Shown piece by piece: positions 4,678-33,938 of a stretch of DNA of 64,000 nt. This DNA comes from Burkholderiaceae bacterium (GTDB lineage: Bacteria > Pseudomonadota > Gammaproteobacteria > Burkholderiales > Burkholderiaceae_C), in assembly GCA_017992055.1 (NCBI GenBank), contig JAGOPK010000013.1:1-64000 (forward strand), given 5' to 3'. The notes beneath the pieces are model-generated. The model did not search any database. It was given only the letters and a program-made list of their open reading frames with translations, and was not told where the DNA came from. Position 1 is the first letter of the stretch, and every line of letters begins with the position of its first letter. A program made the position numbers and the translations under genes.

Positions 4678-4684
4678 AAAGAAA

Positions 4685-4711
4685 AAGGGCAGGCCTTGTG
4701 GGCCTGCCCTT
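4685..4711 (-). terminator. Intrinsic terminator between convergent genes
   Basis: A perfect 11-bp stem (AAGGGCAGGCC / GGCCTGCCCTT) with a 5-base loop. Read on the minus strand, the stem is followed by a run of Ts broken by one C (the plus-strand A-run at 4677-4686), so it should end transcription of the DUF4148 gene. On the plus strand the trailing T-run is short, so it may only partly serve the aldehyde dehydrogenase. Confidence 0.85.
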
Positions 4712-4732
4712 GTTGCCGAAGCGGCGCCGGAC

Positions 4733-5101
4733 TTACTTGGCGGCGACGTTCTGGCCGGTGGTGCGCTTGGCGGCCGGGGCCACGTTGTTGAAGCCGTAGG
4801 TCTCCGAGTTGATCAGGGCCGCTTCGCCGCTGGCGATGGCGCGGCGCGTCTCGGCCTTGACTTCGGCGCGGGCCACATGGGTGCGCAGCGGCTCGATGTA
4901 GCCGGCACGCCAGGCGTTGATGCTGCCGTCGGCGCGCGCCGCATACAGCTCGGCGGTGACCTGGGTGCGGGTCTTGGTGCTCTTGGCCTGGGTCATCCAG
5001 GTGTCGGGCGTGGCTTCCTGGGCCATGGCGGCGCCGGCACCCAGCAGGGCGATCGCGGCGGTGGCCAGGGTGATCAGGGTTTGGCGGGCATTGCGGCTCA
5101 T
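4733..5101 (-). CDS. DUF4148 domain-containing exported protein
   Basis: A 122-residue protein with a clear Sec signal peptide (LATAAIALLGAGAAMAQE, cleavage probably after AMA). The mature part has the DUF4148 pattern: short helices with T/SR-x-QV-x-AEL and a TYGFNN segment near the end. This family is common in Burkholderiales, often in several copies per genome, with no established function; a periplasmic role is inferred from the signal. GGAG lies 7-10 bases before the ATG. It is followed by its own strong terminator, so it looks monocistronic. Confidence 0.85.
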   Translation of the reverse strand: MSRNARQTLITLATAAIALLGAGAAMAQEATPDTWMTQAKSTKTRTQVTAELYAARADGSINAWRAGYIEPLRTHVARAEVKAETRRAIASGEAALINSETYGFNNVAPAAKRTTGQNVAAK

Positions 5102-5388
5102 GTCAGGCTCCTTCAGGGTCGGTTCTCAGCAGGTTCAATCAGGGCATGTCGTGGGGCCAGGCTTGCGGCCCACTCTGTCCAGCTTCGATGCCCTTCGCTG
5201 TGGGGTGACTGCGGCATCGATGGGATGAACTGTAGGTACTAACCCGATACGGAAAAACCAGCGCCCGCTGAATGCATCATTTCAATTTCACGAACAATGA
5301 ACGGGGTTGAAAACAATCCTGCCGCCCTTTGCTGGGGGTGGTGCCATGGTTCCGACATGGCCATTGTCCATTTGTGAATAATGGTGTC
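5102..5388. promoter_or_regulatory. Intergenic promoter region, DUF4148 gene / LysR gene
   Basis: This 287-base gap contains no gene I can support. It is more A/T-rich than its surroundings, as expected of a divergent promoter. Two candidate sites are visible. TTCA-N7-TGAA at 5287-5301 has the T-N11-A symmetry of LysR boxes. GCCATG-N7-CATGGC lies about 40 bases before the LysR start. Confidence 0.4.
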
Positions 5389-6411
5389 ATGGACCTGATA
5401 CGCGCGATGAGAGTCTTCTGCCGCGTCGCCGACGAGGGCAGCTTTGCCGCCGCCAGCCGTTCGCTGGACCTGGCGCCGGCCGTCGTCACCCGCGTGGTGG
5501 CCGAGCTGGAGGAGCACCTGGGTGCGCGGCTGATGAACCGCACCACGCGCCGCCTGGCGCTGACCGAGGTGGGCGAGGACTACCTGGCCCGCTCGCGCCA
5601 GATCCTGGCCGATGTCGACGATGCCGAGGCCCTGGCGCAAAGCTCCACCGCCGAGCCGCGTGGCCACCTGCGCGTGCTGTGCCCGCCATCGCTGGCCGTG
5701 CACCAGCTGGCCAAGCACCTGCCCGAGTTCCATCGCCGCCACCCGCTGATCACCATCGAGCTGCACACGCCGGGGCCGGTGGAGGCGGTGGACGAGGGCT
5801 ATGACCTGACGCTGATCTCCAACCGCGGCGTGCTGGACGGCGACTTCATCGCCCGGCGCCTGGCGCGCACCGAGGTCATCCTCTGCGCCTCGCCCGAGTA
5901 CCTGGACCTGCGCGGTCGGCCCGCCCATCCGTCGGACCTGGTGCAGCACGACACCATGCTGCCGCCCAGCAGCGAGCTGGCGCGCGGCATCACCTTCGTC
6001 GCCGGCGTGCACGACGGCCGGCCTGGCGACGCCAACGGCCACGAGACCTACACCGTGGTGCCGCATCGGCCGCTGCTCAGCACCAGCCATGCCGACACCA
6101 TGTACGCCGGCGCCCTGCATGGCCTGGGCATCGCCGGCCTGCCGTCGTTCATGATCGAGGACGCGCTGCTGGAGCATGCGCTGGAGCGTGTGCTGCCGGC
6201 CTGGCGTCTGTTCTCGCTGAGCATCTGGGCGGCCATGCCCTCGCGCAAGTTCCTGCCGGCGCGCACCCGCGTCTTCCTCGACTTCCTGGTCGAGATCTTC
6301 GGCGGCACCGAGCGCGACCCCTGGCTGGCCGCGGCCGGCTGCGAGACCCTGCCCTTCGACGGCTGCTGCGACGCCAGTGCGCGGCTGCCCAGCCGCGCGC
6401 TGGCCGGCTGA
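5389..6411 (+). CDS. LysR family transcriptional regulator
   Basis: A 340-residue LysR-type activator/repressor. The N-terminal winged helix covers residues 1-60 (MDLIRAMRVFCRVADEGSF, then SRSLDLAPAVVTRVVAELEEHLGARLMNRTTRRLALTEVG written with short gaps). The effector-binding domain starts near residue 90. The ATG at 5389 is the natural start, with the helix-turn-helix at the usual distance. It is about 35-40 residues longer than most relatives; the extra C-terminal tail contains three Cys (GCETLPFDGCC) and looks unstructured. It ends back-to-back with the next LysR gene, their stops abutting. The target is unknown; autoregulation from the upstream gap is likely. Confidence 0.85.
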   Translation: MDLIRAMRVFCRVADEGSFAAASRSLDLAPAVVTRVVAELEEHLGARLMNRTTRRLALTEVGEDYLARSRQILADVDDAEALAQSSTAEPRGHLRVLCPPSLAVHQLAKHLPEFHRRHPLITIELHTPGPVEAVDEGYDLTLISNRGVLDGDFIARRLARTEVILCASPEYLDLRGRPAHPSDLVQHDTMLPPSSELARGITFVAGVHDGRPGDANGHETYTVVPHRPLLSTSHADTMYAGALHGLGIAGLPSFMIEDALLEHALERVLPAWRLFSLSIWAAMPSRKFLPARTRVFLDFLVEIFGGTERDPWLAAAGCETLPFDGCCDASARLPSRALAG

Positions 6412-7338
6412 TCAGGCGGTGGCCAGGCGCTGCGCCACGCGGTCGCCGACAAACTGCATGAAGGCGCGCACGCGCGCGGTCTGGCGCAGGTCCGGGTGGG
6501 TCAGCATCCACACCGGCACGGCCAGCTCGCTGATGGGCTCGCTGACCGCCACCAGCTCGGGATGGCGCGGCTCCATGAAGGTGGGCAGCAGGGCCACGCC
6601 CAGGCCGGTGTGCAGCACCGCGGCGGCGGCGTTGAAGATGTCCACGCGCAGCCGCACCTGCTCGGGCACCAGGTGCTTGCGCAGCCATTGGTCGTACAGC
6701 CGCGCCTGCTGGTCGCGCTCGAAGGCGATCCAGGGCGCGTCGCGCAGCAGCGTGGCCAGCGGCTGCACCGTCTGCGGCAGGCCCGGCGCGCCGCGGCGGG
6801 CATAGACCCGGCACTGGCTCAGGCCCAGCTGGCGGCCCACCAGGTGCTCGGCCACCTGGTGCGACAGACGGATGGCCACGTCGGCCTCGCGCCGTGCCCA
6901 GCCGGCCGACTCGTCGGCATGGCGCCGGCTCAGGTCGGCCAGGAAGGCGTTTTCGACCACCTCGACCTCGATGCCCGGATAGCTGCGCGAAAAGTCGGCC
7001 AGCGGCTGCGGCAGCAGATGCTCCATCACCACGAAGGCCGTGGTCACGCGCAGCACGCCGGTCAGCTCGCGGTCGCGGCCCGAGACGCGGCGCTCGATCT
7101 CCTCGGCCTGGTCGGCCATGCGCCGCGCCTGCTCCAGCAGCAGGGCGCCAGCCTCGGTGGGCAGGTAGCCGGTGCGCGCGCGCTCGAACAATCGCGCGCC
7201 CAGGCGCTCCTCCAGCGCATCCAGGCGCCGCAGCACCGTCGTGTGGTTGACCGCCAGCTGGCGCGCCGCGCCGGCCAGCGAGCCGGTCTGGCCCACCGCC
7301 AGCGCATAGCGCAGATCGCTCCAATCGAGTTCCGCCAT
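6412..7338 (-). CDS. LysR family transcriptional regulator
   Basis: A 308-residue LysR-type regulator starting MAELDWSDLRYALAVGQTGS. The helix-turn-helix (AARQLAVNHTTVLRRLDALEERLG) is of the group in which the regulator often controls a single neighbouring oxidoreductase or transporter. The effector domain follows (ELTGVLRVTTAFVVMEHLLPQ). The ATG at 7338 is supported by AGGAG about 8 bases upstream on the minus strand. The region upstream (7339-7447) separates it from the small ORF at 7448 on the other strand, which might be its target. No effector can be named. Confidence 0.87.
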   Translation of the reverse strand: MAELDWSDLRYALAVGQTGSLAGAARQLAVNHTTVLRRLDALEERLGARLFERARTGYLPTEAGALLLEQARRMADQAEEIERRVSGRDRELTGVLRVTTAFVVMEHLLPQPLADFSRSYPGIEVEVVENAFLADLSRRHADESAGWARREADVAIRLSHQVAEHLVGRQLGLSQCRVYARRGAPGLPQTVQPLATLLRDAPWIAFERDQQARLYDQWLRKHLVPEQVRLRVDIFNAAAAVLHTGLGVALLPTFMEPRHPELVAVSEPISELAVPVWMLTHPDLRQTARVRAFMQFVGDRVAQRLATA

Positions 7339-18216: not shown

Positions 18217-18279
18217 CCTCGCCCGATCCTGCCGGCCGGCCCGCTGTCGCCGGTTGGACAGGTCTGCGTGGATAAAAAA

Positions 18280-18293
18280 CTATCATGCGATAG
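18280..18293. promoter_or_regulatory. Candidate TetR operator and -10 region
   Basis: CTATC-ATGC-GATAG forms a short inverted repeat in an A/T-rich island 24 bases before the start at 18317. TATCAT inside it is one base off the -10 consensus, and TTGGAC at 18254-18259 is a weak -35-like element though spaced too far. A repressor bound here would block the promoter. The assignment to the TetR gene just upstream is inference. Confidence 0.4.
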
Positions 18294-18316
18294 CTTTCTA
18301 TCCGCAAAGGCCTGCC

Positions 18317-19660
18317 ATGACCGTTTCCATCGCCGCCCTGCAGCAGCAGGTGCAACGCCAGCGTGAACTGGCGCCGGCCCTGTATGCCGACATGGACTTC
18401 GACCAGCTGCCCGAGCGCTGGACCGAAACGCCCGGCGACGACAGCCACCTGGCGCCGGGCCTGACCGGCCGCCGCAACCAGCTGCTGGCCGACCCCGAGC
18501 GCGTGGCCCTGATGCGTGCCTACACCCTGCTGGGCGACGCGGTCTGCGATGCCTATGTGGCGCTGATGCCGCGGCTGGGCTTCAAGACCCTGGTGGCCCT
18601 GCTGGTGCAGGCCTGCGAGCGCGGCGTGGACCAGGTGGCCGAAGCCCCGCCCGAGCTGGTGGCCCTGCTGCGCGACATGGAGCGCGTGCCGGACTGGCTG
18701 GACATGGACCTGGTGGAGCGCGGCGCGCGCATCGAGCGCAACGGCGCCGCCCACCTGGGGCCGGTGATCATGCGCGGCGCCTTCCTGGCCACCTTCCTCA
18801 ACAAGTACGCGGCCTTGCCGATGGTGCTGACCGGCCGCTTGTCCACCCAGCGCGCCGCGCACCGGGTCAAGGAGACGGCCAGCTTCTTCACCCTCAGCGT
18901 GATGCCTGGCGCGCTGCGCCGCGACGGCGCCGGCTTCAAGGCCGCGGCCATGGTGCGGCTGATGCACTCGATGGTGCGCTTCAATGCGCTGCGCAGCGGC
19001 GCCTGGGACCGCCGGGTCTACGGCATCCCGATCCCGCAGGTCGACCAGATGCCGGCCGGCCTGATCGCCATCTACCTGATGGCCAGCCGGGTGCTGAAGT
19101 CGGGCCGCAGCACGTTCACGCCCGACGAGCGTGCGCGGGTCGAGCTGGCGCGCTACCGCGCCTACCTGCTGGGCCTGCCCGAGGCCTTGCTGGCCGATAC
19201 GCCGCGGGCCATCGTCGACCTGTGGCTGACGCGCGCGGCCACGCTGCGCAAGGGCTTCGACGACGCCACCTGCGGCGAGCTGATCCGCTCGACCATGGCC
19301 GCCTACCTGCCGGCCGACCGCCGCTGGACCAGCCGGCTGCGCCAGCGCCTGGAGCAGGGCTTCTCCAAGGCCTTCTTCGTGCGCGCCTTCCTCTACGGCG
19401 ATCGCGAACGCGCCGCGCGCATCGGCGTGCAGGTCGGCGCGGCCGACCGGCTGTGTGCGCTGCTGGTGCTGGCCGGCGTGGCCTCGCGCATGCTGGCCTT
19501 CGGCCTGGCGGCACGAGTGCCGGGCCTGGCCGACTGGGCCGACCGCCGCCTGGTGGCCAAGCTCAGGCGCCGGCTGCAGGGCCTGGGCCAGGCCGAGTTC
19601 ACCACCGATGCGCCGCCGCCCGGCCATGGCGGCGGGGCGGGGCGGCCGTCGGCCGCCTGA
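18317..19660 (+). CDS. MpaB/DUF2236 family oxygenase-like protein
   Basis: A 447-residue protein of the DUF2236 (MpaB, latex-clearing protein-like) superfamily, haem-dependent oxygenases or relatives. The middle has GAAHLGPVIMRGAFLATFLN, then RVKETASFFTLSVMPGALRRDGAGFKAAAMVRLMHSMVR; the last His and Arg correspond to the conserved family core. The ATG at 18317 is preferred because the open frame upstream covers the putative promoter. No signal peptide is evident. It lies downstream of the TetR gene with an operator-like repeat between. Enzymatic activity and substrate are not established for most members. Confidence 0.8.
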   Translation: MTVSIAALQQQVQRQRELAPALYADMDFDQLPERWTETPGDDSHLAPGLTGRRNQLLADPERVALMRAYTLLGDAVCDAYVALMPRLGFKTLVALLVQACERGVDQVAEAPPELVALLRDMERVPDWLDMDLVERGARIERNGAAHLGPVIMRGAFLATFLNKYAALPMVLTGRLSTQRAAHRVKETASFFTLSVMPGALRRDGAGFKAAAMVRLMHSMVRFNALRSGAWDRRVYGIPIPQVDQMPAGLIAIYLMASRVLKSGRSTFTPDERARVELARYRAYLLGLPEALLADTPRAIVDLWLTRAATLRKGFDDATCGELIRSTMAAYLPADRRWTSRLRQRLEQGFSKAFFVRAFLYGDRERAARIGVQVGAADRLCALLVLAGVASRMLAFGLAARVPGLADWADRRLVAKLRRRLQGLGQAEFTTDAPPPGHGGGAGRPSAA

Positions 19661-20169: not shown

Positions 20170-21099
20170 ATGAACATCCACGCCCGCGCCCTCAAGTACT
20201 TCGACACCATCCGCCGCGCCGGCTCGATCCGCGAGGCGGCGCGGCGCCTGCATGTGGCCTCGTCGGCGGTCAACCGCCAGCTGCTGCAGCTGGAGGACGA
20301 GATCGGCGCGCCGCTGTTCGAGCGCATGTCCTCGGGCTTGAAGCTCACCGCCGCCGGCGAGGTGTTTTCGCGCCATGTCATCACCGTGCTGCAGGACGAG
20401 CACCGGCTGATCGGCGAGCTGGAGGCGCTCAAGGGCATACGCCGCGGCGAACTGAAGCTGATCTCGGTGGAGGGCCTGAACGCCGACCTGCTGCCCCAGG
20501 TGCTGGAGCGCATGCTGACGCGCTATCCCACCATCCGCATCAGCGCGCGCTCGGCCGGCTCGGCCCAGACCGCGCGGGCGCTGATCGATGGTGACGCCGA
20601 CCTGGCCATCGGCTTCTCGCTGGAGCGCAGCGAGGCCCTGCGCCAGTGCGCGGTGGGCCGCTTCGGCCTGGGCGCCATCGTGCCGCCGGCGCATCCGCTG
20701 GCCGCGCTGGCCCAGGTGGGCCTGGCCGAGTGCGCGCGCTACCCGCTGATCCTGGCCGGGCCCGAGCTGTCCATCCATGCCTCGATGAAGCCGCTGATCG
20801 CCCACCTGAAGCGGCCGCTGACGGTGCTGCTGGAAACCGCCTCCATCGAGCTGGCCAAGACCCTGGCCATGCGCGGCCTGGGCGTGGCCTTCCAGACGCG
20901 CATCGGCATGGAGCGTGAGCTGGCCGAGGGCCGCCTGGTGCATGTGCCGCTGAAGGCCGGCAACGCCCAGCCGCGCGTGCTCAGCGAGCTGGGCGTGTAT
21001 GTGCGCGCCGGCCGCACGCTGCCGCCGGTGCTGGACGCCTTCATCCGCCTGGTGGCCGAGGAGCTGGAGCGGCGCGAGGCCGAGGAGCCCGCGCCGTGA
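20170..21099 (+). CDS. LysR family regulator of the heterocycle-degradation operon
   Basis: A 309-residue LysR-type regulator starting MNIHARALKYFDTIRRAGSI, with the helix-turn-helix AARRLHVASSAVNRQLLQLEDEIGAPLFE and a full effector domain. This sequence type (SIREAARRLHVASSAVNRQ) is often found beside nucleobase or amine catabolic genes. It is co-directional with, and 116 bases upstream of, the oxygenase at 21216, so it probably controls that operon in response to the substrate or a pathway intermediate. Direct evidence is limited to position. Confidence 0.88.
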   Translation: MNIHARALKYFDTIRRAGSIREAARRLHVASSAVNRQLLQLEDEIGAPLFERMSSGLKLTAAGEVFSRHVITVLQDEHRLIGELEALKGIRRGELKLISVEGLNADLLPQVLERMLTRYPTIRISARSAGSAQTARALIDGDADLAIGFSLERSEALRQCAVGRFGLGAIVPPAHPLAALAQVGLAECARYPLILAGPELSIHASMKPLIAHLKRPLTVLLETASIELAKTLAMRGLGVAFQTRIGMERELAEGRLVHVPLKAGNAQPRVLSELGVYVRAGRTLPPVLDAFIRLVAEELERREAEEPAP

Positions 21100-21215
21100 T
21101 GCCGGGCTGAGCCTGCCGCTGATGCCGTTTCGGCAGCACCCCGCGCCAAAAACGGCGCTATCCGGATCGGGCCGCGGTTTCTAGACTGACTTCCGTCAAG
21201 TCCGAATCCGCCGCC
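21100..21215 (+). promoter_or_regulatory. Promoter region of the heterocycle-degradation operon
   Basis: The 116-base gap holds two inverted repeats, TGCCG-TTT-CGGCA (21124-21136) and GCGCC-AAAAAC-GGCGC (21143-21158). A -10-like TAGACT lies at 21182-21187, 28 bases before the ATG. No strong Shine-Dalgarno precedes the ATG at 21216. One repeat may be a weak terminator of the LysR gene and the other its binding site. Confidence 0.4.
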
Positions 21216-22199
21216 ATGACTGTTGCCTCCGCCCCGGTGTCCAGCCCCCCCAGCCTGCCGCTGATCGACTTCAGCGCCTGGCGCTCGGGCACGGCGCAGG
21301 GCCGGGCAGCGGTGGCGGCGGCGCTGCGCCAGGCCTGCGAGCAGCGCGGCTTCTTCTACCTCACCGGCCATGGCGTGCCGCAGCCGCTGATCGCCGCGGC
21401 CTTTGCGCAGTCCGAGCGCTTCTTCGACCTGCCGGAAGACAGCAAGTGCGCGCTGGACAAGGTGCACTCGCGCTGCAACCGCGGCTACGAGCCGCTGCGC
21501 GCCCAGCGCCTGGAGGCCGGCGCGCCGCCGGACCTGAAAGAGAGCTTCTACATCGGCCAGGAGGTGGCCGAAGACGATCCACGCGTGCTGGCCGGCCGCT
21601 TCAACACCGGGCCCAACCAGTGGCCGGCCGGCCTGGACGGCTTCCGCGAGGCCATGCAGGCCTATTTCGACGCCGCCCATGGTCTGGGCGCCGAGGTCGT
21701 GCGCGCCCTGGGCCAGTCGCTGGACCTGCCCGAGGGCACGTTCGAGCCCTATCTGCAGGACGCGGCCGCCACGCTGCGCCTGCTGCACTATCCGCCGCAG
21801 CCGCCGAACCCGCAGCCGGGCGAGAAGGGCTGCGGCGAGCACACCGACTTCGGCGGCGTGACCCTGCTGCTGCAGGACGACTGCGGCGGCCTGCAGGTCT
21901 GGGACGCGGCCAGCGCCGGCTGGATCGACGCGCCGCCGGTGGCCGGCGCCTATGTGGTGAACATCGGCGACCTGTTCGCGCGCTGGACCAATGGCCGCTA
22001 CCGCTCCACGCTGCACCGGGTCATCAACCGCTCGGGCCGCGAGCGGCATTCGATCCCGTATTTCTTCACCGGCAACCCCACGCATGTGGTCAGCGGCCTG
22101 CCCACCTGCCTGGCACCGGGCGAGGCGCCGCGCCAGCCGCCGATCACGGTGGAGGCGCACCTGCAGGAGTGCTACCGCCGCACCTACGGCACGCCGTGA
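21216..22199 (+). CDS. 2-oxoglutarate/Fe(II)-dependent oxygenase (isopenicillin N synthase-like)
   Basis: A 327-residue double-stranded beta-helix oxygenase of the DIOX_N/2OG-FeII_Oxy group. The metal triad is visible: His209 and Asp211 in GEHTDFGG and His267 in STLHRVIN. The 2-oxoglutarate-binding pair is Arg277 and Ser279 (RHSIPYF). The N-terminal domain has the usual QRGFFYLTGHGVP and FFDLP. Relatives include isopenicillin N synthase, plant hormone oxidases and fungal thymine-7-hydroxylase. Its neighbours (importer, base deaminase, molybdenum hydroxylase) point to hydroxylation or N-dealkylation of a nitrogen heterocycle, not antibiotic synthesis. Its stop overlaps the next start (TGATG). 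Confidence 0.88.
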   Translation: MTVASAPVSSPPSLPLIDFSAWRSGTAQGRAAVAAALRQACEQRGFFYLTGHGVPQPLIAAAFAQSERFFDLPEDSKCALDKVHSRCNRGYEPLRAQRLEAGAPPDLKESFYIGQEVAEDDPRVLAGRFNTGPNQWPAGLDGFREAMQAYFDAAHGLGAEVVRALGQSLDLPEGTFEPYLQDAAATLRLLHYPPQPPNPQPGEKGCGEHTDFGGVTLLLQDDCGGLQVWDAASAGWIDAPPVAGAYVVNIGDLFARWTNGRYRSTLHRVINRSGRERHSIPYFFTGNPTHVVSGLPTCLAPGEAPRQPPITVEAHLQECYRRTYGTP

Positions 22200-23029
22200 T
22201 GCCCCAGGCCGCCAAGCACCTGGTGCTGATCCACGGCGCCTGGCAGGGCGCCTGGGCCTTCGACGCCTGGCGTCCGCTGCTGGCCCAGGCCGGCTGGACG
22301 GTGCACACGCCCGATCTGCCGGGCAACGGCTGGGGGCCGGATGCCGACGCGCCGGCCTCGCTGGCCACCTATGTGGACCAGGTGCTGGCCCTGCTGCGCG
22401 GTCTGGATGGCCCGGTGGTGCTGCTGGGCCACAGCGGCGGCGGCATCACCGCCACCGCGGTGGCCGAGGCCTGGCCCGAGCGCCTGGCGGCGGTGGTCTA
22501 CCTGGCCGGCATCATGCTGCCCTCGGGCCGCAGCCATGGCGAGCTGCTGGGCGAGCTGCAGGCCCGGCAGCCGGGGCTGGACCTGGGCGGCATCGCGCCG
22601 CATCTGCAGTGGTCGGCCGACCGCCGCACCACGACAGTGCCCGAGGCCGCGGCGCTGCACATCTTTCTGCACGACTGCGAGCCGCAGGCCGCCCGCCGCG
22701 CCGCGGCCCTGCTGCGGCCCCAGCCTGAGAGCGGGCGTGCGCTGCGCCCGCTGTGGACGGCCCAGCGCGCCGGCCGCGTGCCACGCGTCTATGTGGAATG
22801 CGCGCAGGACCGCTCCATCGTCCCGGCCGTGCAGCAGCACTTCCAGGCCTTGAGCCCGGGCGCCCAGCGCCTGGTGCTGGACTGCGGCCATGTGCCCCAG
22901 CTGGCCTGCCCGGCCGGGCTGACAGCCGCCCTGCTGCCGCGGCTGGACACGCTTCTTGCATTGCCCCCATTGCCCACCTTGCCCGCCACCGCTTCTTCTT
23001 CCCCAACCGTCGCACAGGACCTGCCATGA
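22199..23029 (+). CDS. Alpha/beta hydrolase
   Basis: A 276-residue alpha/beta-fold hydrolase. The oxyanion block is LVLIHGAWQGAWAFDAW, and the nucleophile elbow is LLGHSGGG with Ser as nucleophile. The acid is probably Asp in VECAQDRSIVP, and the catalytic His is in DCGHVPQLACP. The ILVHGAWQGAW start resembles plant-type esterases/hydroxynitrile lyases and bacterial esterases of the same subfamily. It overlaps the oxygenase gene by one base and the ABC binding-protein gene by four (ATGA), so it is firmly in the operon. It could hydrolyse a ring-opened or ester intermediate; unproven. Confidence 0.87.
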   Translation: MPQAAKHLVLIHGAWQGAWAFDAWRPLLAQAGWTVHTPDLPGNGWGPDADAPASLATYVDQVLALLRGLDGPVVLLGHSGGGITATAVAEAWPERLAAVVYLAGIMLPSGRSHGELLGELQARQPGLDLGGIAPHLQWSADRRTTTVPEAAALHIFLHDCEPQAARRAAALLRPQPESGRALRPLWTAQRAGRVPRVYVECAQDRSIVPAVQQHFQALSPGAQRLVLDCGHVPQLACPAGLTAALLPRLDTLLALPPLPTLPATASSSPTVAQDLP

Positions 23030-24024
23030 CCCGTCTTCGTTTCCCGCTGCTGCCGCGCACCGCGGTGCTGGCCCTGAGCCTGGCCGCCGGCCTGGCCCAG
23101 GCCGCCGACAAGCTCACGGTGCAGCTCGACTGGCTGCCCGGCGGCGACAAGAGCTTCGTCTATGCCGGCGTCAAGCAGGGCTTCTTCGCCGCCGAGGGCC
23201 TGGAGGTGACCATCACCCCGGGCCGCGGCTCGGCCGATGCCATCACCAAGGTGGGCTCGGGCGCGGCCGACGTGGGCTTTGGCGGCATCTCCGCGCTGAT
23301 GATGGCCGCGGCCGAGGGCGGCGTGCCGGTCAAGGCCGTGGCCTCGCTGTATGCCAAGCAGCCCGATGCCATCTTCACCACCAAGGGCAGCGGCATCACC
23401 AGCCTGAAGGGCACCGAGGGCAAGACCGTGGCCACCTCCACCTTCTCGTCCAGCAATACGCTGTGGCCGGTGGTGCTGGAGGCCAATGGCATCGACGCCG
23501 GCAAGATCAAGCTGCTGAAGGTGGACCCGGCCACGCTGGCGCCGATGCTGGCCCAGGGCAAGGTGGATGCCACCATCAACTGGGTCACCGTGGGCCCGGC
23601 CTTCGACGCCGTGCTCAAGCAGGCCGGCAAGGAGCTGGTGGTGCTGCCCTGGTCGGCCGCCGGCCTGGACGGCTATGGCTGGTCGGTGATGGCCGGCGAC
23701 AAGATCATCAAGGAGCGGCCCGAGGTGCTGCGCCGCTACCTGCGTGCGCTGATGAAGTCGCTGCAGTTCGCCATCGCCAACCCCGACAAGGCCGCGGCCG
23801 ACCTGAAGGCCGCCGTGCCCGAGGCCGATGCCGCGGTGCTGGCGCGTGAATTCCGCGCCTCCATCCCGCTGATCGACAACGAGGTCAGCAAGAAGGACGG
23901 CATCGGCAAGTTCGAGCCCAAGCAGCTGGCCGCCACCTGGACCTGGGTGGCCAAGTCGATGAACTACGCGCCGACCAAGGTCGACCCCGAGAAGCTGGTC
24001 GACCGCAGCTTCCTGCCCAAGTGA
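23026..24024 (+). CDS. ABC transporter substrate-binding protein (NMT1/THI5-like)
   Basis: A 332-residue periplasmic binding protein. The signal peptide is residues 1-25 (LAALSL-type core with cleavage after AQA, giving ADKLTVQLDWLPGG). The mature part has the NMT1/SsuA-like fold: DWLPGGDKSFVYAGVKQGFF, then VTITPGRGSADAITKVGSG and VGFGGISALMMAAAEG. Family members bind pyrimidine precursors, taurine, nitrate or aromatic sulfonates. With the ATPase and permease that follow it forms a complete importer. The ATG overlaps the hydrolase stop (ATGA). The ligand is not readable from the sequence; the operon suggests a nucleobase-like compound. Confidence 0.9.
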   Translation: MTRLRFPLLPRTAVLALSLAAGLAQAADKLTVQLDWLPGGDKSFVYAGVKQGFFAAEGLEVTITPGRGSADAITKVGSGAADVGFGGISALMMAAAEGGVPVKAVASLYAKQPDAIFTTKGSGITSLKGTEGKTVATSTFSSSNTLWPVVLEANGIDAGKIKLLKVDPATLAPMLAQGKVDATINWVTVGPAFDAVLKQAGKELVVLPWSAAGLDGYGWSVMAGDKIIKERPEVLRRYLRALMKSLQFAIANPDKAAADLKAAVPEADAAVLAREFRASIPLIDNEVSKKDGIGKFEPKQLAATWTWVAKSMNYAPTKVDPEKLVDRSFLPK

Positions 24025-24026
24025 CG

Positions 24027-24809
24027 ATGAAGCCCTCCGGCGCGGTGATCACGCTGCAAGGCGTGGGCATGCGCTTCGTGTCCAGCGATGGCAGCCCGGT
24101 GCAGGCCCTGCAGGGCGTGGACCTGGCCCTGCAGCGGCATGAGTTCGTGTCGCTGATCGGGCCCTCGGGCTGCGGCAAGAGCACCATCCTGAGGCTGATC
24201 GCCGGCCTGCTCAAGCCCAGCGAGGGCCAGCTGGCCATCTTCGACCTGCCGGTCACCGAGCCGCGCGACGAGATCGGCGTGGTGTTCCAGAAGCCCACGC
24301 TGCTGCCCTGGCTGAACGTGCTGGACAACGTGACCTTCCCGATGAAGCACAAGCACGGCCGTGTCGACGCGCGCGACCGCGCCCGTGCCCAGGAGCTGCT
24401 GGCGATGACCGGGCTGAGCGACTTTGCCGCCAAGCGCCCGGCCGAGCTGTCGGGCGGCATGCAGCAGCGCGTGGCCATCGCACGCTCGCTGCTGCACGAC
24501 CCCGACATCCTGCTGATGGACGAGCCGTTTTCGGCGCTGGATGCGCTGACCCGCGATGAGATGAGCTTCGAGCTGCTGCGCATCTGGGGCGAGCGGCCCA
24601 AGACCGTGGTCTTCGTCACCCATTCCATCCAGGAGGCGCTGCTGCTGTCCGACCGCATCGTGGTGATGAGCGCACGCCCCGGCCGCGTGGCCGAGATCAT
24701 CGACGTGCCGCTGCCACGCCCGCGCAGCCTGGCCACGCTGTCCGACCCGGTGTTCACGGCCCTGGCCAACGACATCCGCGTCAAGGTGTTCAGCCGCAAG
24801 CCGGTGTGA
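24027..24809 (+). CDS. ABC transporter ATP-binding protein
   Basis: A 260-residue nucleotide-binding subunit of the nitrate/taurine class. Walker A is GPSGCGKSTI, the Q-loop is VFQKPTLLPWL, the signature LSGGMQQRVAIARSLL, Walker B ILLMDEPFSALD and the switch His is in FVTHSIQEALLL. The ATG at 24027 is used; a GTG at 24021 overlapping the upstream stop is equally possible. It pairs with the permease at 24823 and the binding protein just upstream. Confidence 0.92.
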   Translation: MKPSGAVITLQGVGMRFVSSDGSPVQALQGVDLALQRHEFVSLIGPSGCGKSTILRLIAGLLKPSEGQLAIFDLPVTEPRDEIGVVFQKPTLLPWLNVLDNVTFPMKHKHGRVDARDRARAQELLAMTGLSDFAAKRPAELSGGMQQRVAIARSLLHDPDILLMDEPFSALDALTRDEMSFELLRIWGERPKTVVFVTHSIQEALLLSDRIVVMSARPGRVAEIIDVPLPRPRSLATLSDPVFTALANDIRVKVFSRKPV

Positions 24810-24822
24810 GGAGAGGCCCCGC

Positions 24823-25587
24823 GTGTCCGCATTTCTGAACCGCCACGCCTCGCTGCTGGCCTTTGTCGCCGTGCTGGCGCTGTGGGAGGCCGCGGCGCGC
24901 GGCCTGTCGCTGCCTGTCTACATCCTGCCGGCGCCCAGCGCCATTGCGCTGGCCGTGCAGGAGCTGGGTTATGCCCGCTGGGGCGAGCACCTGCTGGCCA
25001 CGCTGTCGGTGGCGCTGATGGGCTATGGCCTGGCGATCGCCATTGCGCTGCCGCTGGCCGTGGGCATCACGCATTCGCCGCTGCTGGCGCGCACCCTGCT
25101 GCCCTGGCTGGTGGTGATCCAGTCCACGCCCATCGTGGCGATTGCGCCCATCATCGTGGTCACGCTGGGCGCGGGCAATCTGCCGCGGGTGGTGATCACC
25201 ACGCTGATCGCGTTTTTCCCGCTGGTCATTTCCACCGCCACCGGCCTGGCCGCGGTGCCGGCCGAGTTGATCGAGCTGTCGCGCTCGCTGCGCGCCAGCC
25301 GCGGGCGCGAATATGCGCAGATCCGCCTGCCCTATGCCGTGCCCTACATCTTCTCGGCGCTGAAGGTGGCCATCACGCTGGCGGTGATCGGCGCCGTGGT
25401 GGCCGAGTTCGTGGCCGCTGAAAAGGGCCTGGGCTACCTGATCCTGTTCGCCACCTCGTCGTTCAAGGTGCCGGTGGCCTTTGCCTCGCTGACGCTCTTG
25501 GTCGGTTGCAGCCTGGCGCTGTACGGGGTGATCGTCTGGCTGCACCGCCGCCTGTTCCCGTGGAGCCTGTCCACGCCCTCGTCCTGA
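24823..25587 (+). CDS. ABC transporter permease
   Basis: A 254-residue inner-membrane permease (GTG start) with about six membrane segments. The cytoplasmic EAA-type loop is ELIELSRSLRASRGREYAQIRLPYAVPYIF, which docks on the ATPase. It belongs to the SsuC/TauC/NrtB group. GGAG precedes the start by seven bases, and 13 bases separate it from the ATPase gene. Confidence 0.9.
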   Translation: MSAFLNRHASLLAFVAVLALWEAAARGLSLPVYILPAPSAIALAVQELGYARWGEHLLATLSVALMGYGLAIAIALPLAVGITHSPLLARTLLPWLVVIQSTPIVAIAPIIVVTLGAGNLPRVVITTLIAFFPLVISTATGLAAVPAELIELSRSLRASRGREYAQIRLPYAVPYIFSALKVAITLAVIGAVVAEFVAAEKGLGYLILFATSSFKVPVAFASLTLLVGCSLALYGVIVWLHRRLFPWSLSTPSS

Positions 25588-25594
25588 GCCCGCC

Positions 25595-26098
25595 ATGAAC
25601 CTGCCACCCCAGGGCCTGGAGCCCACGCCCGAACAGATCCTGCGCCACCTGCGCCGCGCCAATGCCGTGGCCCAGCGTGCCATCGCCCTGGGCCACCACC
25701 CGTTTGGCGCCATCCTGGTCGGGCCCGACCAGGAGAGCGTGCTGCTGGAGCAGTGCAACATCGACGCCGTCAACCATGCGGAGAGCACGCTGGCGCGCGT
25801 GGCCGCCAGCAACTACACGCCCGAGTTCCTGTGGGGCTGCACGCTCTACACCACGGCCGAGCCCTGCTGCATGTGCGCCGGCACCGCCTACTGGGCCCAC
25901 ATCGGCCGCATCGTCTACGGCATGACCGAGGCCCAGCTGCTGGCCGAAACCGGCAGCCACCCCGAGAACCCGACCATGGACCTGCCCTGCCGCCAGGTCT
26001 TTGCCGCCGGCCAGAAGCCGGTGCAGGTGATCGGCCCGGTCGAGGCCATCGTGCCCGAGGTGCTGGCCCTGCACCAGGGCTTCTGGACCGGGCGCTGA
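25595..26098 (+). CDS. Nucleobase/nucleoside deaminase (CDA fold, guanine deaminase-like)
   Basis: A 167-residue zinc deaminase. The catalytic set is complete: H61-A62-E63 (VNHAESTLARV) and P90-C91-C-M-C94 (TAEPCCMCAGTAYWAHIGRIVYGM). The sequence is closer to bacterial guanine deaminase and related nucleoside deaminases than to the tRNA enzyme TadA. The reaction would convert an amino-purine or related base to its oxo form, a suitable substrate for the molybdenum hydroxylase encoded next. It starts 8 bases after the permease and ends 7 bases before the FAD subunit. Confidence 0.87.
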   Translation: MNLPPQGLEPTPEQILRHLRRANAVAQRAIALGHHPFGAILVGPDQESVLLEQCNIDAVNHAESTLARVAASNYTPEFLWGCTLYTTAEPCCMCAGTAYWAHIGRIVYGMTEAQLLAETGSHPENPTMDLPCRQVFAAGQKPVQVIGPVEAIVPEVLALHQGFWTGR

Positions 26099-26104
26099 CG
26101 CGCG

Positions 26105-26974
26105 ATGGACGCGGCCATGCTGGACTGGACCCTGCCGCCGCCGGCCGAGGCCCCGGCGCTGTGCCAGCCGGCCAGCGCGGCCCAGGCCCTGGCCCTGCGC
26201 CAGCAGCCCGGCGCCGCCTACATTGCCGGCGGCACGGCGCTGCAGCTGGCCTGGGGCGTGGCCGAGGAAGAACGGCCCACGGCCGGCCTGCTGATCGACC
26301 TGCTGGCCGGCGCCGTGCCGGCCGGCGTGGCGCTGGCGGCCCTGCCCGATGGCCAGCCGGCGCTGCGCCTGGGCGCCGGCACACGGCTGGAGGCGCTGCG
26401 CCGCGAGCCTCGGGTGCGTGCGCAAGCGCCGCGCCTGGCCGAGGCGCTGGACAGCATCGCCGCACCCGGCGTGCGCCAGCTGGCCACGCTGGGCGGCAAC
26501 ATCGCCTGGCGCTGCGGCGATGCCGTGCCGGCCCTGCTGGCCGCCGGGGCCTGGGTGGAGTTGGCCGAGGGCGGGCCGCAGCCGCTGGAATCGCTGCTGC
26601 AGGCCGAGCCGCCGCTGATCGTCGCCGTGCTGTGGCCGCTGGCCTCGGCGCCCTGGACCGGCTGGTCGGTGTTCGAGAAGCTGGGCTGGCGCGCCGCGTT
26701 TTCGCCGTCGCGGCTGACGCTGGCCATCGAGGTGGCCTGCGTCGATGGCCGCTTCCACCGGCCGCAGCTGGCCGCCACCGCCGCCGGCTGGCCGGCGCGA
26801 CGCCTGGCCCAGGCCGAGGCCTGGCTGGCCGGCCGATCAACTTCGGCACTGGCCGGCGCGTCGGCCGCGCTGCGCCAGGCCTGCCTGGCCGATCTGCAGG
26901 ATGCATCACGCGCCCGCCTGGCCGCCAACCTGATCGCCGCCCACCTGATGCGTGAAGCGAGCGTGCATGGCTGA
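26105..26974 (+). CDS. Molybdenum hydroxylase FAD-binding subunit (xanthine dehydrogenase family)
   Basis: A 289-residue FAD_binding_5/CO_deh_flav_C protein. The FAD-binding stretch is YIAGGTALQLAWG, and the second motif LATLGGNIAWRCGDAVPALLA is the family TLGGN element. The C-terminal domain starts near residue 170 (WSVFEKLGWRAAFSPSRLTL). It passes electrons from the iron-sulfur subunit to FAD and on to NAD. A start at 26117 (MLDW) is also possible. The next gene overlaps its end by eight bases, showing coupling among the three subunits. Confidence 0.88.
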   Translation: MDAAMLDWTLPPPAEAPALCQPASAAQALALRQQPGAAYIAGGTALQLAWGVAEEERPTAGLLIDLLAGAVPAGVALAALPDGQPALRLGAGTRLEALRREPRVRAQAPRLAEALDSIAAPGVRQLATLGGNIAWRCGDAVPALLAAGAWVELAEGGPQPLESLLQAEPPLIVAVLWPLASAPWTGWSVFEKLGWRAAFSPSRLTLAIEVACVDGRFHRPQLAATAAGWPARRLAQAEAWLAGRSTSALAGASAALRQACLADLQDASRARLAANLIAAHLMREASVHG

Positions 26975-29243
26975 CCACGATCCACTGCCCACCCAGGTGC
27001 TGGACTCCGGCACGCTGCTGGCGCGCAGCCGGCCACGCGCCGATGCCCAGGCCAAGCTGCGTGGCGAGGCCGGCTTCTTGAGCGACCGGCTGCAGCCTGG
27101 CCAGCTGCACGGCGCCATCCTCGGCAGCCCGCTGCCGCATGCGCGCTTGCTGGCCGTCGACACCACGGCCGCGGCGGCGATGCCCGGCGTGCAGGCGGTG
27201 GTCACCGCCGCCGACATCCCCGGCCCGGCGCTGTACGGCCTGCGCCATGTGGACCGGCCGGCGCTGTGCAGCGATCGCCTGCGCTGCGTCGGCGATCCCA
27301 TCGCCGCGGTGGCCGCCGACACGCCCGAGATCGCCCGCGCCGCGCTGGCCGCAATCCGCCTGCAACTGCAGCCGCTGCCGGTGCTCGACGATGCCGAGGC
27401 CGCGCTGGCGCCCGGGGCCCTGCCGCTGCACGGCGCCAGCAACCTGCTGCACCGGGTGGAACACCGGCAGGGCGATGCCGAGGCGGCGGCCTGCGCCCAT
27501 GTGGTCGAGGCGGTTTATCACAGCCCGCGCCAGATGCCGGTGCCGCTGGAGACCGAGGGCGGCGTGGCCGAGCCCGATGGCCAGGGCGGCCTGGTGCTGT
27601 GGTGGGGCTGCCAGAACCCCGAGCGCGACCGCCAGGTCATCGCCGCCATGCTGTGCCTGCCGCCCGAGCGCGTGCGCGTGGTTGGCTCGCCGCTGGGTGG
27701 CTCGTATGGCGCCAAGGACGAGCTGACGGTGCAGCCCATCGTCGCCCTGCTGGCCTGGAAGACGCAGCGCGCGGTGCGCCTGCAGCTGTCGCGGCCGGCC
27801 TCCACCGACCTGGGCGTCAAGCGCCATGCGATGACGATCCGCATGCGCAGCGGCTGCGATGCCCAGGGCCGGCTGTGCCTGCACCGCGTCGACATCCTGG
27901 CCGATACCGGCGCCTATGCCACGCATGGCCCCGAGGTGCTGGATGCTGCGGTCGAGCATGCGGTGGGCCCCTATGCCTGGCCAGCGCTGAGCATCCAAGC
28001 CCGCCTGGCCTACACCAACAACGGCATCGCCGGCGCCATGCGCGGCTTTGGCGCAGTGCAGGTGCAATGGGCGCTGGAGCAGCAGATGGATCGCCTGGCG
28101 CGGGCCTGCGGCGCCGATGCGCTGGACTTCCGCCGCCGCAACCTGGCGGCCATGGACGCGCCGGGCCCGCTGGGCCAGCAGGTCGCGCCGTTCGACGGCC
28201 CGCGCCTGGCGCTGGCGCAGATCGCCCGGCATCCGCTGTGGCTGGGCCGCGCCGAGCGTGCCGACGACAACGATGGGCGCTACTGCCATGGCACCGGCCT
28301 GGCCCTGGTGCAGCGCAGTGACGGCTTCGGCCGCGGCGGGCCCAATGGCGCCCGGCTGATGCTGGCCCTGGCCGCCGATGGCCGCATCGAGCTGCGCGTC
28401 AGCCTCACCGAGATGGGCCAGGGCCTGGATGCGGCCCTGCGTGCGCTGGCCGTGCGCCACTGGGGCTGCGCCGAGGACGATCTGCGCCCGCTCATCGGCG
28501 ACACCGCGCTGGCGCCCGACACCGGCGCGGCGGCCGCCTCGCGCTCGACCACGCTGCTGCACCGGGCGTTGTCGGGGCCCGGGCGCGACTGGGTCGACGG
28601 CCTCACCCGCCTGGCCGCCGCGCGGCTGGGCCTGGCACCTGCGGCGCTGCGGCTGGGGCCCGGCGGCTGGAGCGATGGCCAGGGCCGGCCCCAGCTCAGC
28701 CTGGCGGCCCTGGCCCGGCAGCTGGCGGCCGATCTGCCGCAGCGGCTGATCGAGCTGGACGCCGAGGAGACGCCCAGCCCGGTGCCCGGCGCGCACTGGG
28801 TGTTTGGCGCCTGTGCGGCGCTGGCGCGGGTGCGCATCGACCGCTGGACCGGCGCGCTGCAGGTGCAGCGCCTGGTGGTGGCCGCGGCGCTGGGGCCGGT
28901 GGCCTCGCCGCTGGGCCTGCTGGGCCAGATCGAGGGCGGGGCGCTGATGGGCCAGGGCCTGGCCACCTGCGAGCGCCTGGACATGGCGGCGGGCCGCTAT
29001 CTGGCGCGCAACCTCGATGCCTATCTGCTGCCGGTGCTGGCGGATGCGCCGCAGTGGGAGCTGCTGGCCATCGAGGACCTGCCACCCGGCGATGCCGTGG
29101 GCCCGCGGGGCGCCGGCGAGATCGCCGTCAACATCGCCGTGCCGGCGATTGCCAATGCGGTCACGGCGGCCATCGCCCTGCCGGTGGACCACTTGCCGAT
29201 CACCCCCGACGCCATCCTGGACTGGCTGGAGCGCAAACCATGA
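26967..29243 (+). CDS. Molybdenum hydroxylase large (molybdopterin-binding) subunit
   Basis: A 758-residue xanthine-dehydrogenase-family large subunit. The first domain (a/b hammerhead) has GEAGFLSDRLQPGQLHGAIL. The substrate-binding block is AGAMRGFGAVQVQWALEQQM, with the Arg that often orients purines. The catalytic Glu is in PRGAGEIAVNIAVPAIANAV near the C-terminus. Together with the FAD and 2Fe-2S subunits this is a complete molybdenum hydroxylase that would hydroxylate a carbon next to a ring nitrogen. Purine is the likeliest substrate class because of the deaminase in the operon, but related enzymes oxidise other N-heterocycles or aldehydes. It overlaps both neighbours. Confidence 0.9.
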   Translation: MADHDPLPTQVLDSGTLLARSRPRADAQAKLRGEAGFLSDRLQPGQLHGAILGSPLPHARLLAVDTTAAAAMPGVQAVVTAADIPGPALYGLRHVDRPALCSDRLRCVGDPIAAVAADTPEIARAALAAIRLQLQPLPVLDDAEAALAPGALPLHGASNLLHRVEHRQGDAEAAACAHVVEAVYHSPRQMPVPLETEGGVAEPDGQGGLVLWWGCQNPERDRQVIAAMLCLPPERVRVVGSPLGGSYGAKDELTVQPIVALLAWKTQRAVRLQLSRPASTDLGVKRHAMTIRMRSGCDAQGRLCLHRVDILADTGAYATHGPEVLDAAVEHAVGPYAWPALSIQARLAYTNNGIAGAMRGFGAVQVQWALEQQMDRLARACGADALDFRRRNLAAMDAPGPLGQQVAPFDGPRLALAQIARHPLWLGRAERADDNDGRYCHGTGLALVQRSDGFGRGGPNGARLMLALAADGRIELRVSLTEMGQGLDAALRALAVRHWGCAEDDLRPLIGDTALAPDTGAAAASRSTTLLHRALSGPGRDWVDGLTRLAAARLGLAPAALRLGPGGWSDGQGRPQLSLAALARQLAADLPQRLIELDAEETPSPVPGAHWVFGACAALARVRIDRWTGALQVQRLVVAAALGPVASPLGLLGQIEGGALMGQGLATCERLDMAAGRYLARNLDAYLLPVLADAPQWELLAIEDLPPGDAVGPRGAGEIAVNIAVPAIANAVTAAIALPVDHLPITPDAILDWLERKP

Positions 29244-29707
29244 CGGCCGAGACCCTGATCGACCTGCACTGCCGCGTCAACGGCCAGCCGGTGGCGCTGC
29301 GCTGCCCGCCGACGCGGCGCCTGCTGGCGCTGCTGCGCGAGGACCTGGGCCTGGCCGGCGCCAAGCCCGGCTGCGGCGTCGGCCGCTGCGGCGCCTGCCT
29401 GGTCTGGCTGGACGGCGAGCCGGCCAATGCCTGCCTGGTGATGGCCTACCAGCTGCAGGGCCGCGAGGTGACGAGCATCGAGGCCGTCGGCGCCAGCGAG
29501 GCCAGCGCCCCGGTGCGCGAGGCCCTGGCCCGCTGCGGCGGCGTGCAATGCGGCTACTGCAGCCCCGGCCTGGTGATGATGCTGACCCATCTGCACCAGC
29601 AGCAGCCGCGCCCCGATGCGCAGCAGGCGGCCGGGCAGCTGAATGGCCAGCTGTGCCGCTGCACCGGCTATGGCGGCCTGCAGCGCACGCTGGCGGTGCT
29701 GTTCTGA
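29240..29707 (+). CDS. Molybdenum hydroxylase 2Fe-2S subunit
   Basis: A 155-residue small subunit with two 2Fe-2S clusters. Cluster one is plant-ferredoxin type (KPGCGVGRCGACLVWLDGEP, then ANAC). Cluster two has CGGVQCGYCSPG and LCRCTGYGG. The ATG overlaps the large-subunit stop (ATGA). It is the last gene of the operon that begins at 21216. Electrons pass from molybdopterin through these clusters to the FAD subunit. Confidence 0.93.
   Translation: MTAETLIDLHCRVNGQPVALRCPPTRRLLALLREDLGLAGAKPGCGVGRCGACLVWLDGEPANACLVMAYQLQGREVTSIEAVGASEASAPVREALARCGGVQCGYCSPGLVMMLTHLHQQQPRPDAQQAAGQLNGQLCRCTGYGGLQRTLAVLF

Positions 29708-29774: not shown

Positions 29775-33938
<4,164 letters not shown>

What the first reader, a model, noticed from the sequence alone, without database searches (positions are those of the whole stretch)
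20170..29707. Ten-gene operon pairing a 2-oxoglutarate oxygenase with an ABC importer, a nucleobase deaminase and a molybdenum hydroxylase
Seen: tightly packed, overlapping genes for a LysR regulator, an IPNS-like Fe(II) oxygenase with complete active site, an alpha/beta hydrolase, an NMT1-type importer, a CDA-fold deaminase and all three subunits of a xanthine-dehydrogenase-type enzyme. Known: the last two together are usual in purine breakdown; fungal thymine-7-hydroxylase belongs to the same oxygenase fold. Inferred: the oxygenase and hydrolase extend the route to a substituted or uncommon N-heterocycle (methylated purine, pyrimidine, pterin). No urate oxidase or allantoinase gene is in the window, so this may not be plain purine degradation.
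Basis: partly seen in the sequence, partly recalled or inferred. Interest (0 to 1): 0.72.

Follow-up and report, generated by a model that had tools for sequence, protein, structure and literature searches.

The report
Operon for scavenging unusual purines
A ten-gene bacterial operon probably imports and breaks down modified purine bases, most likely ones carrying an extra alkyl group, starting with an oxygen-dependent enzyme whose task is still untested.

Summary
In detail: ten same-strand genes at 20170-29707 (LysR, Fe(II)/2OG oxygenase, alpha/beta hydrolase, NMT1-type importer, CDA-fold deaminase, three molybdenum-hydroxylase subunits). All ten recur in 11 of 18 carrier genomes (window included). 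A LysR-type palindrome before the oxygenase occurs once in the 5.9 Mb genome and recurs in six other carriers. The oxygenase is patchy: 6 of 399 order genomes at E 1e-85. Context points to purines, though only 4 of 18 carrier loci show purine or Ndm-type genes nearby. The oxygenase groups (support 100/99) with oxygenases on Pseudomonas, Acinetobacter and Moraxella plasmids that lie, variously, near hpxO, allantoicase, nucleobase symporters and NdmCDE-type genes; one Burkholderiales genome joins the LysR-oxygenase-hydrolase core to NdmC/D/E-like genes. The own genome has guanine deaminase, XDH, urate oxidase and allantoinase-like genes elsewhere, so this is an added route. Best reading: use of N-alkylated purines, with oxygenase plus hydrolase as entry step. 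Substrate and reactions are inferred. The molybdenum enzyme is PucD-like and xanthine is not excluded. Pyrimidine and pterin readings have weak support. Ten open-access literature searches found no description of it.

The parts
20170..21099 (+). LysR-type regulator
   Evidence: Pfam HTH_1 and LysR_substrate; homologs of 61-83% before the oxygenase in 16 of 17 other carriers (none found in L080)
21123..21135 (+). palindrome TGCCGTTTCGGCA, probable LysR recognition site
   Evidence: only exact copy in the 5.9 Mb genome; same site (T or A in the middle) before the oxygenase in L039, L072, L076, L078, L159, L160
21136..21188 (+). conserved promoter stretch (GCTATC block and CTAGACTG, a probable -10)
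   Evidence: alignment A3 of 16 upstream regions; the -10 label is inference, the sigma-70 scan found no promoter here
21216..22199 (+). Fe(II)/2-oxoglutarate oxygenase, IPNS-like
   Evidence: Pfam DIOX_N + 2OG-FeII_Oxy; HTD...H...RxS kept in 16 of 16
22199..23029 (+). alpha/beta serine hydrolase
   Evidence: Pfam Abhydrolase_6; Ser/Asp/His kept in 15 of 15; start overlaps oxygenase stop by 1 nt
23026..24024 (+). NMT1-type periplasmic binding protein
   Evidence: Pfam NMT1; profile best matches 4nmy and 3ix1
24027..24809 (+). ABC importer ATPase
   Evidence: Pfam ABC_tran
24823..25587 (+). ABC importer permease
   Evidence: Pfam BPD_transp_1
25595..26098 (+). CDA-fold nucleobase deaminase
   Evidence: Pfam dCMP_cyt_deam_1; HAE and PCxxC kept in 11 of 11 aligned sequences
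26105..26974 (+). FAD subunit of the molybdenum hydroxylase
   Evidence: Pfam FAD_binding_5; best NCBIfam pucC, below cut-off
26952..29243 (+). molybdenum subunit, PucD-like (start uncertain)
   Evidence: TIGR03196 569 bits, cut-off 784; catalytic GE kept in 12 of 12
29240..29707 (+). 2Fe-2S subunit
   Evidence: Pfam Fer2 and Fer2_2; best NCBIfam pucE, below cut-off

Best explanation
A LysR-controlled operon for using N-alkylated purine bases (for example methylguanines or methylxanthines from RNA turnover or plants) as nitrogen source. The NMT1-type importer takes up the base; the 2OG oxygenase oxidises the N-alkyl carbon; the serine hydrolase acts on the oxidised product (for instance hydrolysing an N-formyl group to formate); the CDA-fold deaminase removes an exocyclic amino group; the PucD-like molybdenum enzyme hydroxylates the ring towards urate, which the genome's separate urate pathway finishes. 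Shown: genes, recurring order, conserved active sites, conserved upstream site, purine neighbourhoods of oxygenase-clade members. Inferred: that the substrate is an alkylated purine (main inference), the oxygenase reaction, the hydrolase reaction, the order of steps, the role of the upstream site.
For: All ten genes in 11 of 18 carriers. Oxygenase clade (support 100/99) joins the window type to Pseudomonas, Acinetobacter and Moraxella plasmid oxygenases which lie near NCS2 symporter and OmpK channel genes, two of the three also near hpxO, one near allantoicase, one beside NdmCDE-architecture genes; pPp1290 is alike. Part of the upstream site is shared. Bridge genome G449 (L160): LysR 62%, oxygenase 58%, hydrolase 52%, then BMP binding protein, Rieske-less VanA_C oxygenase 60% to the pKF715A NdmC-like protein, Rieske/ferredoxin protein, GST, all on one strand. 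PucD-like molybdenum subunits on two Rhizobium plasmids also sit beside an NdmC-like gene. Verticiella L075 has the full operon plus HpxO (49%) and an HpxD-like Rieske oxygenase (63%) 3-5 kb upstream. Deaminase homologs (50-74%) sit beside NCS2 symporters in 5 of 7 annotated loci. Acinetobacter L066 also carries formaldehyde-disposal genes about 8 kb away. Canonical GuaD and XDH exist elsewhere in the genome.
Against: No substrate was tested. Only 4 of 18 carrier loci (L073, L075, L076, L160) had any hit to my 17 purine/Ndm reference proteins; the window and 13 others had none within the stretch held, nor did the clade members L081-L084 (L084 was not in the tree). The NdmC-like protein's best PDB relatives are SxtDIOX/SxtT, with NdmB/NdmA weaker, so its demethylase role is itself unproven. 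NMT1 proteins also bind non-purines. FrmA and FghA queries had no hit in the window. Oxygenase relatives at 43-44% on Agrobacterium and Paroceanicella plasmids lie with creatininase or cytosine deaminase and no annotated purine genes. B. subtilis PucD shares the Asp of the changed molybdenum site and also lacks the Arg, so plain xanthine is not excluded. The hydrolase has no defined place in a simple N-demethylation. The Acinetobacter and Moraxella tree rows were flagged for deviant composition.
Confidence: 0.47

Rival explanations
1. Unsubstituted purine scavenging: the operon takes up guanine or an oxidised guanine, deaminates it, and the PucD-like enzyme makes urate; the oxygenase oxidises the purine ring itself, as fungal xanthine dioxygenase does (recalled).
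For: Deaminase homologs sit with NCS2 symporters; PucD of B. subtilis, a xanthine dehydrogenase (recalled), has the same Asp and no Arg; L073 lacks the CDA deaminase but has, about 0.7 kb before LysR, an amidohydrolase of NF009059, second best 8-oxoguanine deaminase.
Against: Canonical GuaD and XDH are already in the genome; does not explain the oxygenase-hydrolase pair or its union with NdmCDE-like genes.
Confidence: 0.22
2. Breakdown of N6-substituted adenines (cytokinins) or other side-chain purines: the oxygenase hydroxylates the side-chain carbon next to nitrogen.
For: A 53% relative is on plasmid pPp1290 of P. putida 1290, isolated from the pear phyllosphere.
Against: pPp1290 was described only as carrying IS elements and aromatic-degradation, stress, fluoride and transfer genes (PMC6624763, whole text); a search on bacterial cytokinin breakdown listed nothing relevant; the deaminase context suits 2-aminopurines better (inference).
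Confidence: 0.12
3. A pyrimidine, pterin or thiamin-pyrimidine route, for example thymine-7-hydroxylase-like oxidation.
For: Oxygenase resembles thymine dioxygenase (E 1.5e-42); ThiY and THI5 are among the binding protein's nearest structures; L160 has an amidohydrolase distantly related to cytosine deaminases about 6 kb from the oxygenase (NF004636 568 bits; cytosine deaminase models below cut-off).
Against: Several other 2OG enzymes score higher than thymine dioxygenase. Pyrimidine-breakdown genes were not searched for systematically; the one family tried, barbiturase, was uninformative because its control also found nothing.
Confidence: 0.1

Closest known systems
NdmABCDE methylxanthine N-demethylation clusters (Pseudomonas putida CBB5 type)
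   Same: Purine context; oxygen-dependent demethylation proposed as entry before xanthine breakdown; the LysR-oxygenase-hydrolase core is joined to NdmC/D/E-like genes in G449
   Different: No Rieske-type hit in the window; the oxygen-dependent enzyme is of the Fe(II)/2OG class; the words 2-oxoglutarate, ketoglutarate and dioxygenase do not occur in the main text of the caffeine review PMC4408171
Bacillus subtilis puc operon (PucABCDE)
   Same: FAD/Mo/Fe-S enzyme of the PucCDE lineage
   Different: Scores fall below the NCBIfam cut-offs; oxygenase, hydrolase, importer and CDA deaminase lie in the same operon here
hpx purine clusters (HpxD, HpxO)
   Same: HpxO or HpxD-like genes lie near some homologs
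   Different: No HpxO or HpxD-type hit in the window
N2,N2-dimethylguanine hydrolases (NdmH, amidohydrolases)
   Same: Bacterial enzymes acting on a methylated RNA base (PMC13054789, outline, abstract and passages)
   Different: Hydrolytic and amidohydrolase-fold, not oxidative
CDA-fold deaminase of PDB 5xkq/5xko (Mycobacterium smegmatis MSMEG3575, recalled)
   Same: Best PDB match of the deaminase
   Different: E about 5e-16 only; organism and substrate range are recalled, not checked

Membership tests
Fe(II)/2-oxoglutarate oxygenase superfamily | HxD...H metal triad and RxS 2OG site in the DSBH domain | tested here: met
   Pfam PF03171 90 bits; residues kept in 16 of 16 aligned sequences
Thymine 7-hydroxylase | closest relationship to thymine dioxygenase | tested here: inconclusive
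   E 1.5e-42, behind several other 2OG enzymes; substrate not testable here
PucCDE xanthine dehydrogenase (TIGR03196/03198/03199) | score above curated cut-off | tested here: not met
   569 of 784, 156 of 254, 85 of 306 bits
XdhAB xanthine dehydrogenase (TIGR02965) | score above curated cut-off | tested here: not met
   227 of 849.5 bits; another gene in this genome scores 1177
Xanthine-dehydrogenase family molybdenum hydroxylases | MoCoBD domains, hammerhead domain and catalytic Glu (GE motif) | tested here: met
   Pfam; GE kept in 12 of 12
CDA-fold deaminase | HxE and PCxxC zinc site | tested here: met
   Pfam PF00383; 11 of 11 aligned sequences
TadA tRNA deaminase | score above curated cut-off | tested here: not met
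   46.5 of 150 bits
Taurine or sulfonate binding proteins (TIGR01729, TIGR01728) | score above curated cut-off | tested here: not met
   48.6 of 304; 93.8 of 163.5 bits
NMT1/THI5 binding proteins | Pfam NMT1 domain | tested here: met
   138.5 bits
NMT1/THI5 binding proteins | binds an N-heterocycle | not testable with these tools
NdmABCDE methylxanthine demethylation system | Rieske oxygenase genes in the cluster | tested here: not met
   NdmC-, NdmD- and Rieske-type queries gave no hit in the window
NdmABCDE methylxanthine demethylation system | N-demethylase activity on methylxanthines | not testable with these tools
   needs enzyme assay

The most novel reading that the evidence does not exclude
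A dedicated pathway for free N-methylated purines whose demethylase is a soluble 2-oxoglutarate oxygenase, an AlkB/FTO-like chemistry on free bases evolved in another 2OG lineage, oxidising N-methyl to N-formyl, with a serine hydrolase that releases formate and so avoids free formaldehyde.
Probability: 0.25. Interest if true: 0.78.

Novelty: new variant of a known kind. Interest (0 to 1): 0.52.

Why it matters
Modified purines from RNA turnover and plants are a nitrogen source, and the bacterial methylxanthine N-demethylases described in the papers I read (Ndm) are Rieske enzymes; a 2OG enzyme doing such a step would be a second chemical solution, simpler to express because it needs no reductase partner. 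The operon also gives a compact, testable set: regulator, upstream site, importer and four enzyme activities that travel together across genera.

Tried and rejected
Altered Mo site as proof of a non-xanthine substrate: all 12 aligned window-type sequences have Asp and Ala where the genome's canonical XDH has Glu and Arg (bovine E802/R880, numbering recalled), but B. subtilis PucD pieces also have Asp, with Phe at the second place. Rejected as proof.

Hydroxynitrile-lyase role for the hydrolase: PDB matches include these lyases, but the aligned hydrolases carry HGAW at the oxyanion end, which looks esterase-like (recalled motif knowledge). Not pursued.

Barbiturase test for the oxidative pyrimidine route: uninformative, control rang nowhere. 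PF16181 was a wrong accession for urate oxidase; PF06181 later matched by hmmscan.

OHCU decarboxylase in 17 of 17 other carrier genomes: no matched background was measured; the 14 control genomes gave 4, so little weight.

Short MetE-like methyltransferase in the oxygenase loci L080, L166 and L085 (3 of 103 loci over 6 kb): a lead on methyl fate, too weak to use; in L080 a longer MetE-looking frame lies nearby, by my reading of its sequence.

Literature: ten searches listed no paper whose title or shown abstract describes this operon or a 2OG methylxanthine demethylase; lists were capped and the library is open-access only.

Full report
OBSERVATION. The window holds ten + strand genes from 20170 to 29707, with a 116 bp spacer after LysR and then gaps of -23 to +13 bp. 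Pfam confirms each fold. Counting the window each time, the oxygenase keeps its HTD...H metal triad and RxS site in 16 of 16 aligned sequences, the hydrolase its Ser/Asp/His in 15 of 15, the deaminase its HAE and PCxxC in 11 of 11, the molybdenum subunit its catalytic GE in 12 of 12. The frame-broken MAG locus L074 was left out of these alignments.

CONSERVATION. A scan of GTDB genomes with peptide patterns of the oxygenase gave 55 loci, a method that finds close relatives only; 14 are at 66-73% identity (L067-L080). With the window, G129 (L039), G256 (L159) and G449 (L160, 58%) I counted 18 carriers. All ten genes are present in 11: window, L039, L159, L067, L068, L069, L070, L074 (a MAG with frame breaks), L075, L078, L079. 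L071 has the first eight up to the contig end; L072 and L073 lack only the deaminase; L076 has the first six; L077 lacks the hydrolase and the three Mo-enzyme subunits; L160 has regulator, oxygenase and hydrolase; L080 oxygenase and hydrolase (about 10 kb or less each side was seen). L081 (60%, a Rhodospirillaceae MAG), not counted among the 18, has oxygenase and hydrolase. Named genomes with all ten include Comamonas testosteroni, Comamonas suwonensis, Verticiella sediminum and a Variovorax. The oxygenase is patchy: at E 1e-85 or better it is in 6 of 399 genomes of the order, of which own, G256 and G449 show the regulator-oxygenase-hydrolase core while L161-L163 do not, and in 1 of 369 of the class sample, own only. 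Of 200 family genomes 41 have some relative at E 1e-40; only own and G129 (73%) exceed 66% identity.

WIDER MODULE. Of 20 regions fetched around oxygenase relatives in 18 family genomes (chosen mainly by score, not a random draw; the window-type L039 is one), 15 have an NMT1-type binding protein match within about 3 kb and 9 hold a deaminase homolog. In 11 regions fetched for other reasons (not random either) none matches the deaminase, oxygenase, hydrolase or binding protein. The own genome has a second LysR - binding protein - deaminase - oxygenase set on contig C37.

REGULATORY SITE. TGCCGTTTCGGCA at 21123-21135 is the only exact copy in the genome (the reversed control pattern occurs twice) and the only one in the window even with one mismatch (chance mean 0.13). 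With T or A in the middle it occurs before the oxygenase in L039, L072, L076, L078, L159 and L160; the pattern is found in 11 of 164 fetched loci, all of them views of these seven sites. Comamonas, P. putida and Acinetobacter keep its right part (AGATCA or GGCATCA) and the following GCT(A/T)T block. That LysR binds it is inferred.

PURINE CONTEXT. The oxygenase tree places the window type, alphaproteobacterial and related MAG ones (L081-L083) and those of P. putida pKF715A, Acinetobacter pACI-3569 and Moraxella p1 in one clade (100/99; the Acinetobacter and Moraxella rows deviate in composition). Those three plasmid genes lie near nucleobase:cation symporter and OmpK channel genes; the P. putida and Acinetobacter ones also near hpxO, and the Acinetobacter one near allantoicase, ureidoglycolate lyase and formaldehyde-disposal genes. 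pKF715A adds a Rieske-less VanA_C oxygenase, a Rieske/NAD-binding/ferredoxin protein and a GST, the arrangement of NdmC, NdmD and NdmE; pPp1290 has the same set with the Rieske/ferredoxin gene annotated in three pieces. The ferredoxin end matches NdmD in the PDB at 1.7e-34, whereas the NdmC-like protein is closer to SxtDIOX than to NdmB. In G449, of the window's order, LysR (62%), oxygenase (58%; about 1.1 kb and one opposite frame after LysR) and hydrolase (52%) are followed on the same strand by a BMP/PnrA-type binding protein, an NdmC-like protein (60% over 221 residues), a Rieske + ferredoxin protein (42% over 149) and a GST (39%). In Verticiella (L075) the full operon has HpxO (49%) and an HpxD-like Rieske oxygenase (63%) upstream. 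L076 has an NCS2 fragment at the locus edge and Rieske and reductase genes; L073 has a Rieske gene, an amidohydrolase and a BMP protein. The other 14 of 18 carriers, the window included, have no hit to my 17 reference proteins in the stretch held, and L081-L084 have none either. PucD-like Mo subunits on two Rhizobium plasmids (43%) sit beside an NdmC-like gene (42-45%), one also with an annotated GST. Deaminase homologs are next to NCS2 symporters in 5 of 7 annotated plasmid loci (an eighth was unannotated). Two more distant oxygenases (43-44%) lie with creatininase or cytosine deaminase and no annotated purine genes.

NOT THE PLAIN PATHWAY. The genome has a canonical guanine deaminase (475 bits, cut-off 375) beside a canonical XDH (1177 bits, cut-off 850) on C21, and on C15 a urate oxidase (PF06181, 431 bits), a PuuE-type allantoinase (388 bits for a cut piece, cut-off 425) and an OHCU decarboxylase. 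The window operon therefore duplicates deaminase and Mo steps and adds uptake, an oxygenase and a hydrolase. The 17 other carriers all have OHCU decarboxylase (no matched background).

TRANSPORT. A profile of 14 binding proteins matches 4nmy (1.6e-28; ligand not stated in the listing), the FAMP-binding ThiY (2.2e-23) and THI5 (2.6e-14) before taurine (3.2e-9) or sulfonate binders (1.1e-5). That favours an N-heterocycle but proves none.

MOLYBDENUM SUBUNIT. The substrate-site residues differ from the genome's canonical XDH in all 12 aligned sequences, but B. subtilis PucD and two Rhizobium relatives also have the Asp and lack the Arg, so it is a lineage trait and xanthine remains possible.

MECHANISM. 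The most conserved unit is LysR + oxygenase (+ hydrolase), which appears with alternative importers (NMT1 ABC, BMP, NCS2) and alternative downstream sets (deaminase + PucD-like enzyme, or NdmCDE-like). This suggests that the oxygenase step is the entry step of a purine-derivative route. Together with Ndm-type neighbours, N-dealkylation is the likeliest reaction; the hydrolase may remove an N-formyl group. These are inferences.

LITERATURE. Seen: PMC4408171, PMC8055839, PMC12828455, PMC11651626, PMC10488154, PMC13391042 (passages), PMC13054789 (outline with abstract, passages), PMC6186785 (first of five parts and passages), PMC6624763 (whole). PMC8055839 states that there were no other reports of N-demethylases degrading caffeine than Ndm at its date. 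PMC13054789 reports bacterial enzymes with high activity on N2,N2-dimethylguanine. Properties of MSMEG3575, B. subtilis PucD, fungal xanthine dioxygenase, NdmC lacking a Rieske domain and the bovine residue numbers are recalled.

Noticed in passing
own genome contig C37, about 127700-131300 (L142 7711-11296): Second cassette LysR - NMT1 binding protein - CDA deaminase - 2OG oxygenase, distant relatives of the window genes; similar sets recur in family genomes such as L040, L043, L048.
   Followed up: partly
L073 2042-3469: An operon copy without the CDA deaminase has, about 0.7 kb before LysR, an amidohydrolase of NF009059 (720 bits, cut-off 543), next best 8-oxoguanine deaminase: possible non-homologous replacement.
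   Followed up: partly
L169 8760-10515: The NdmD-like gene of P. putida plasmid pPp1290 is annotated as three separate frames, unlike the single frame in pKF715A.
   Followed up: no
L173 about 3397-6685: puc genes on a B. subtilis food-strain plasmid record match only in several pieces.
   Followed up: no
L080 11752-12924; L166 3077-4216; L085 9839-10978: Short MetE-like methyltransferase (NF005085 in the first two) in three oxygenase loci.
   Followed up: partly
window 29775-33938: Large protein with nucleotide-cyclase and AAA domains right after the operon, same strand.
   Followed up: no
window 18254-19660: 468 aa frame with no Pfam or NCBIfam match.
   Followed up: no
L043, L048: Binding protein-oxygenase pairs lie next to what look, by eye, like urease (UreD, L048) and urea ABC transporter genes.
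   Followed up: no
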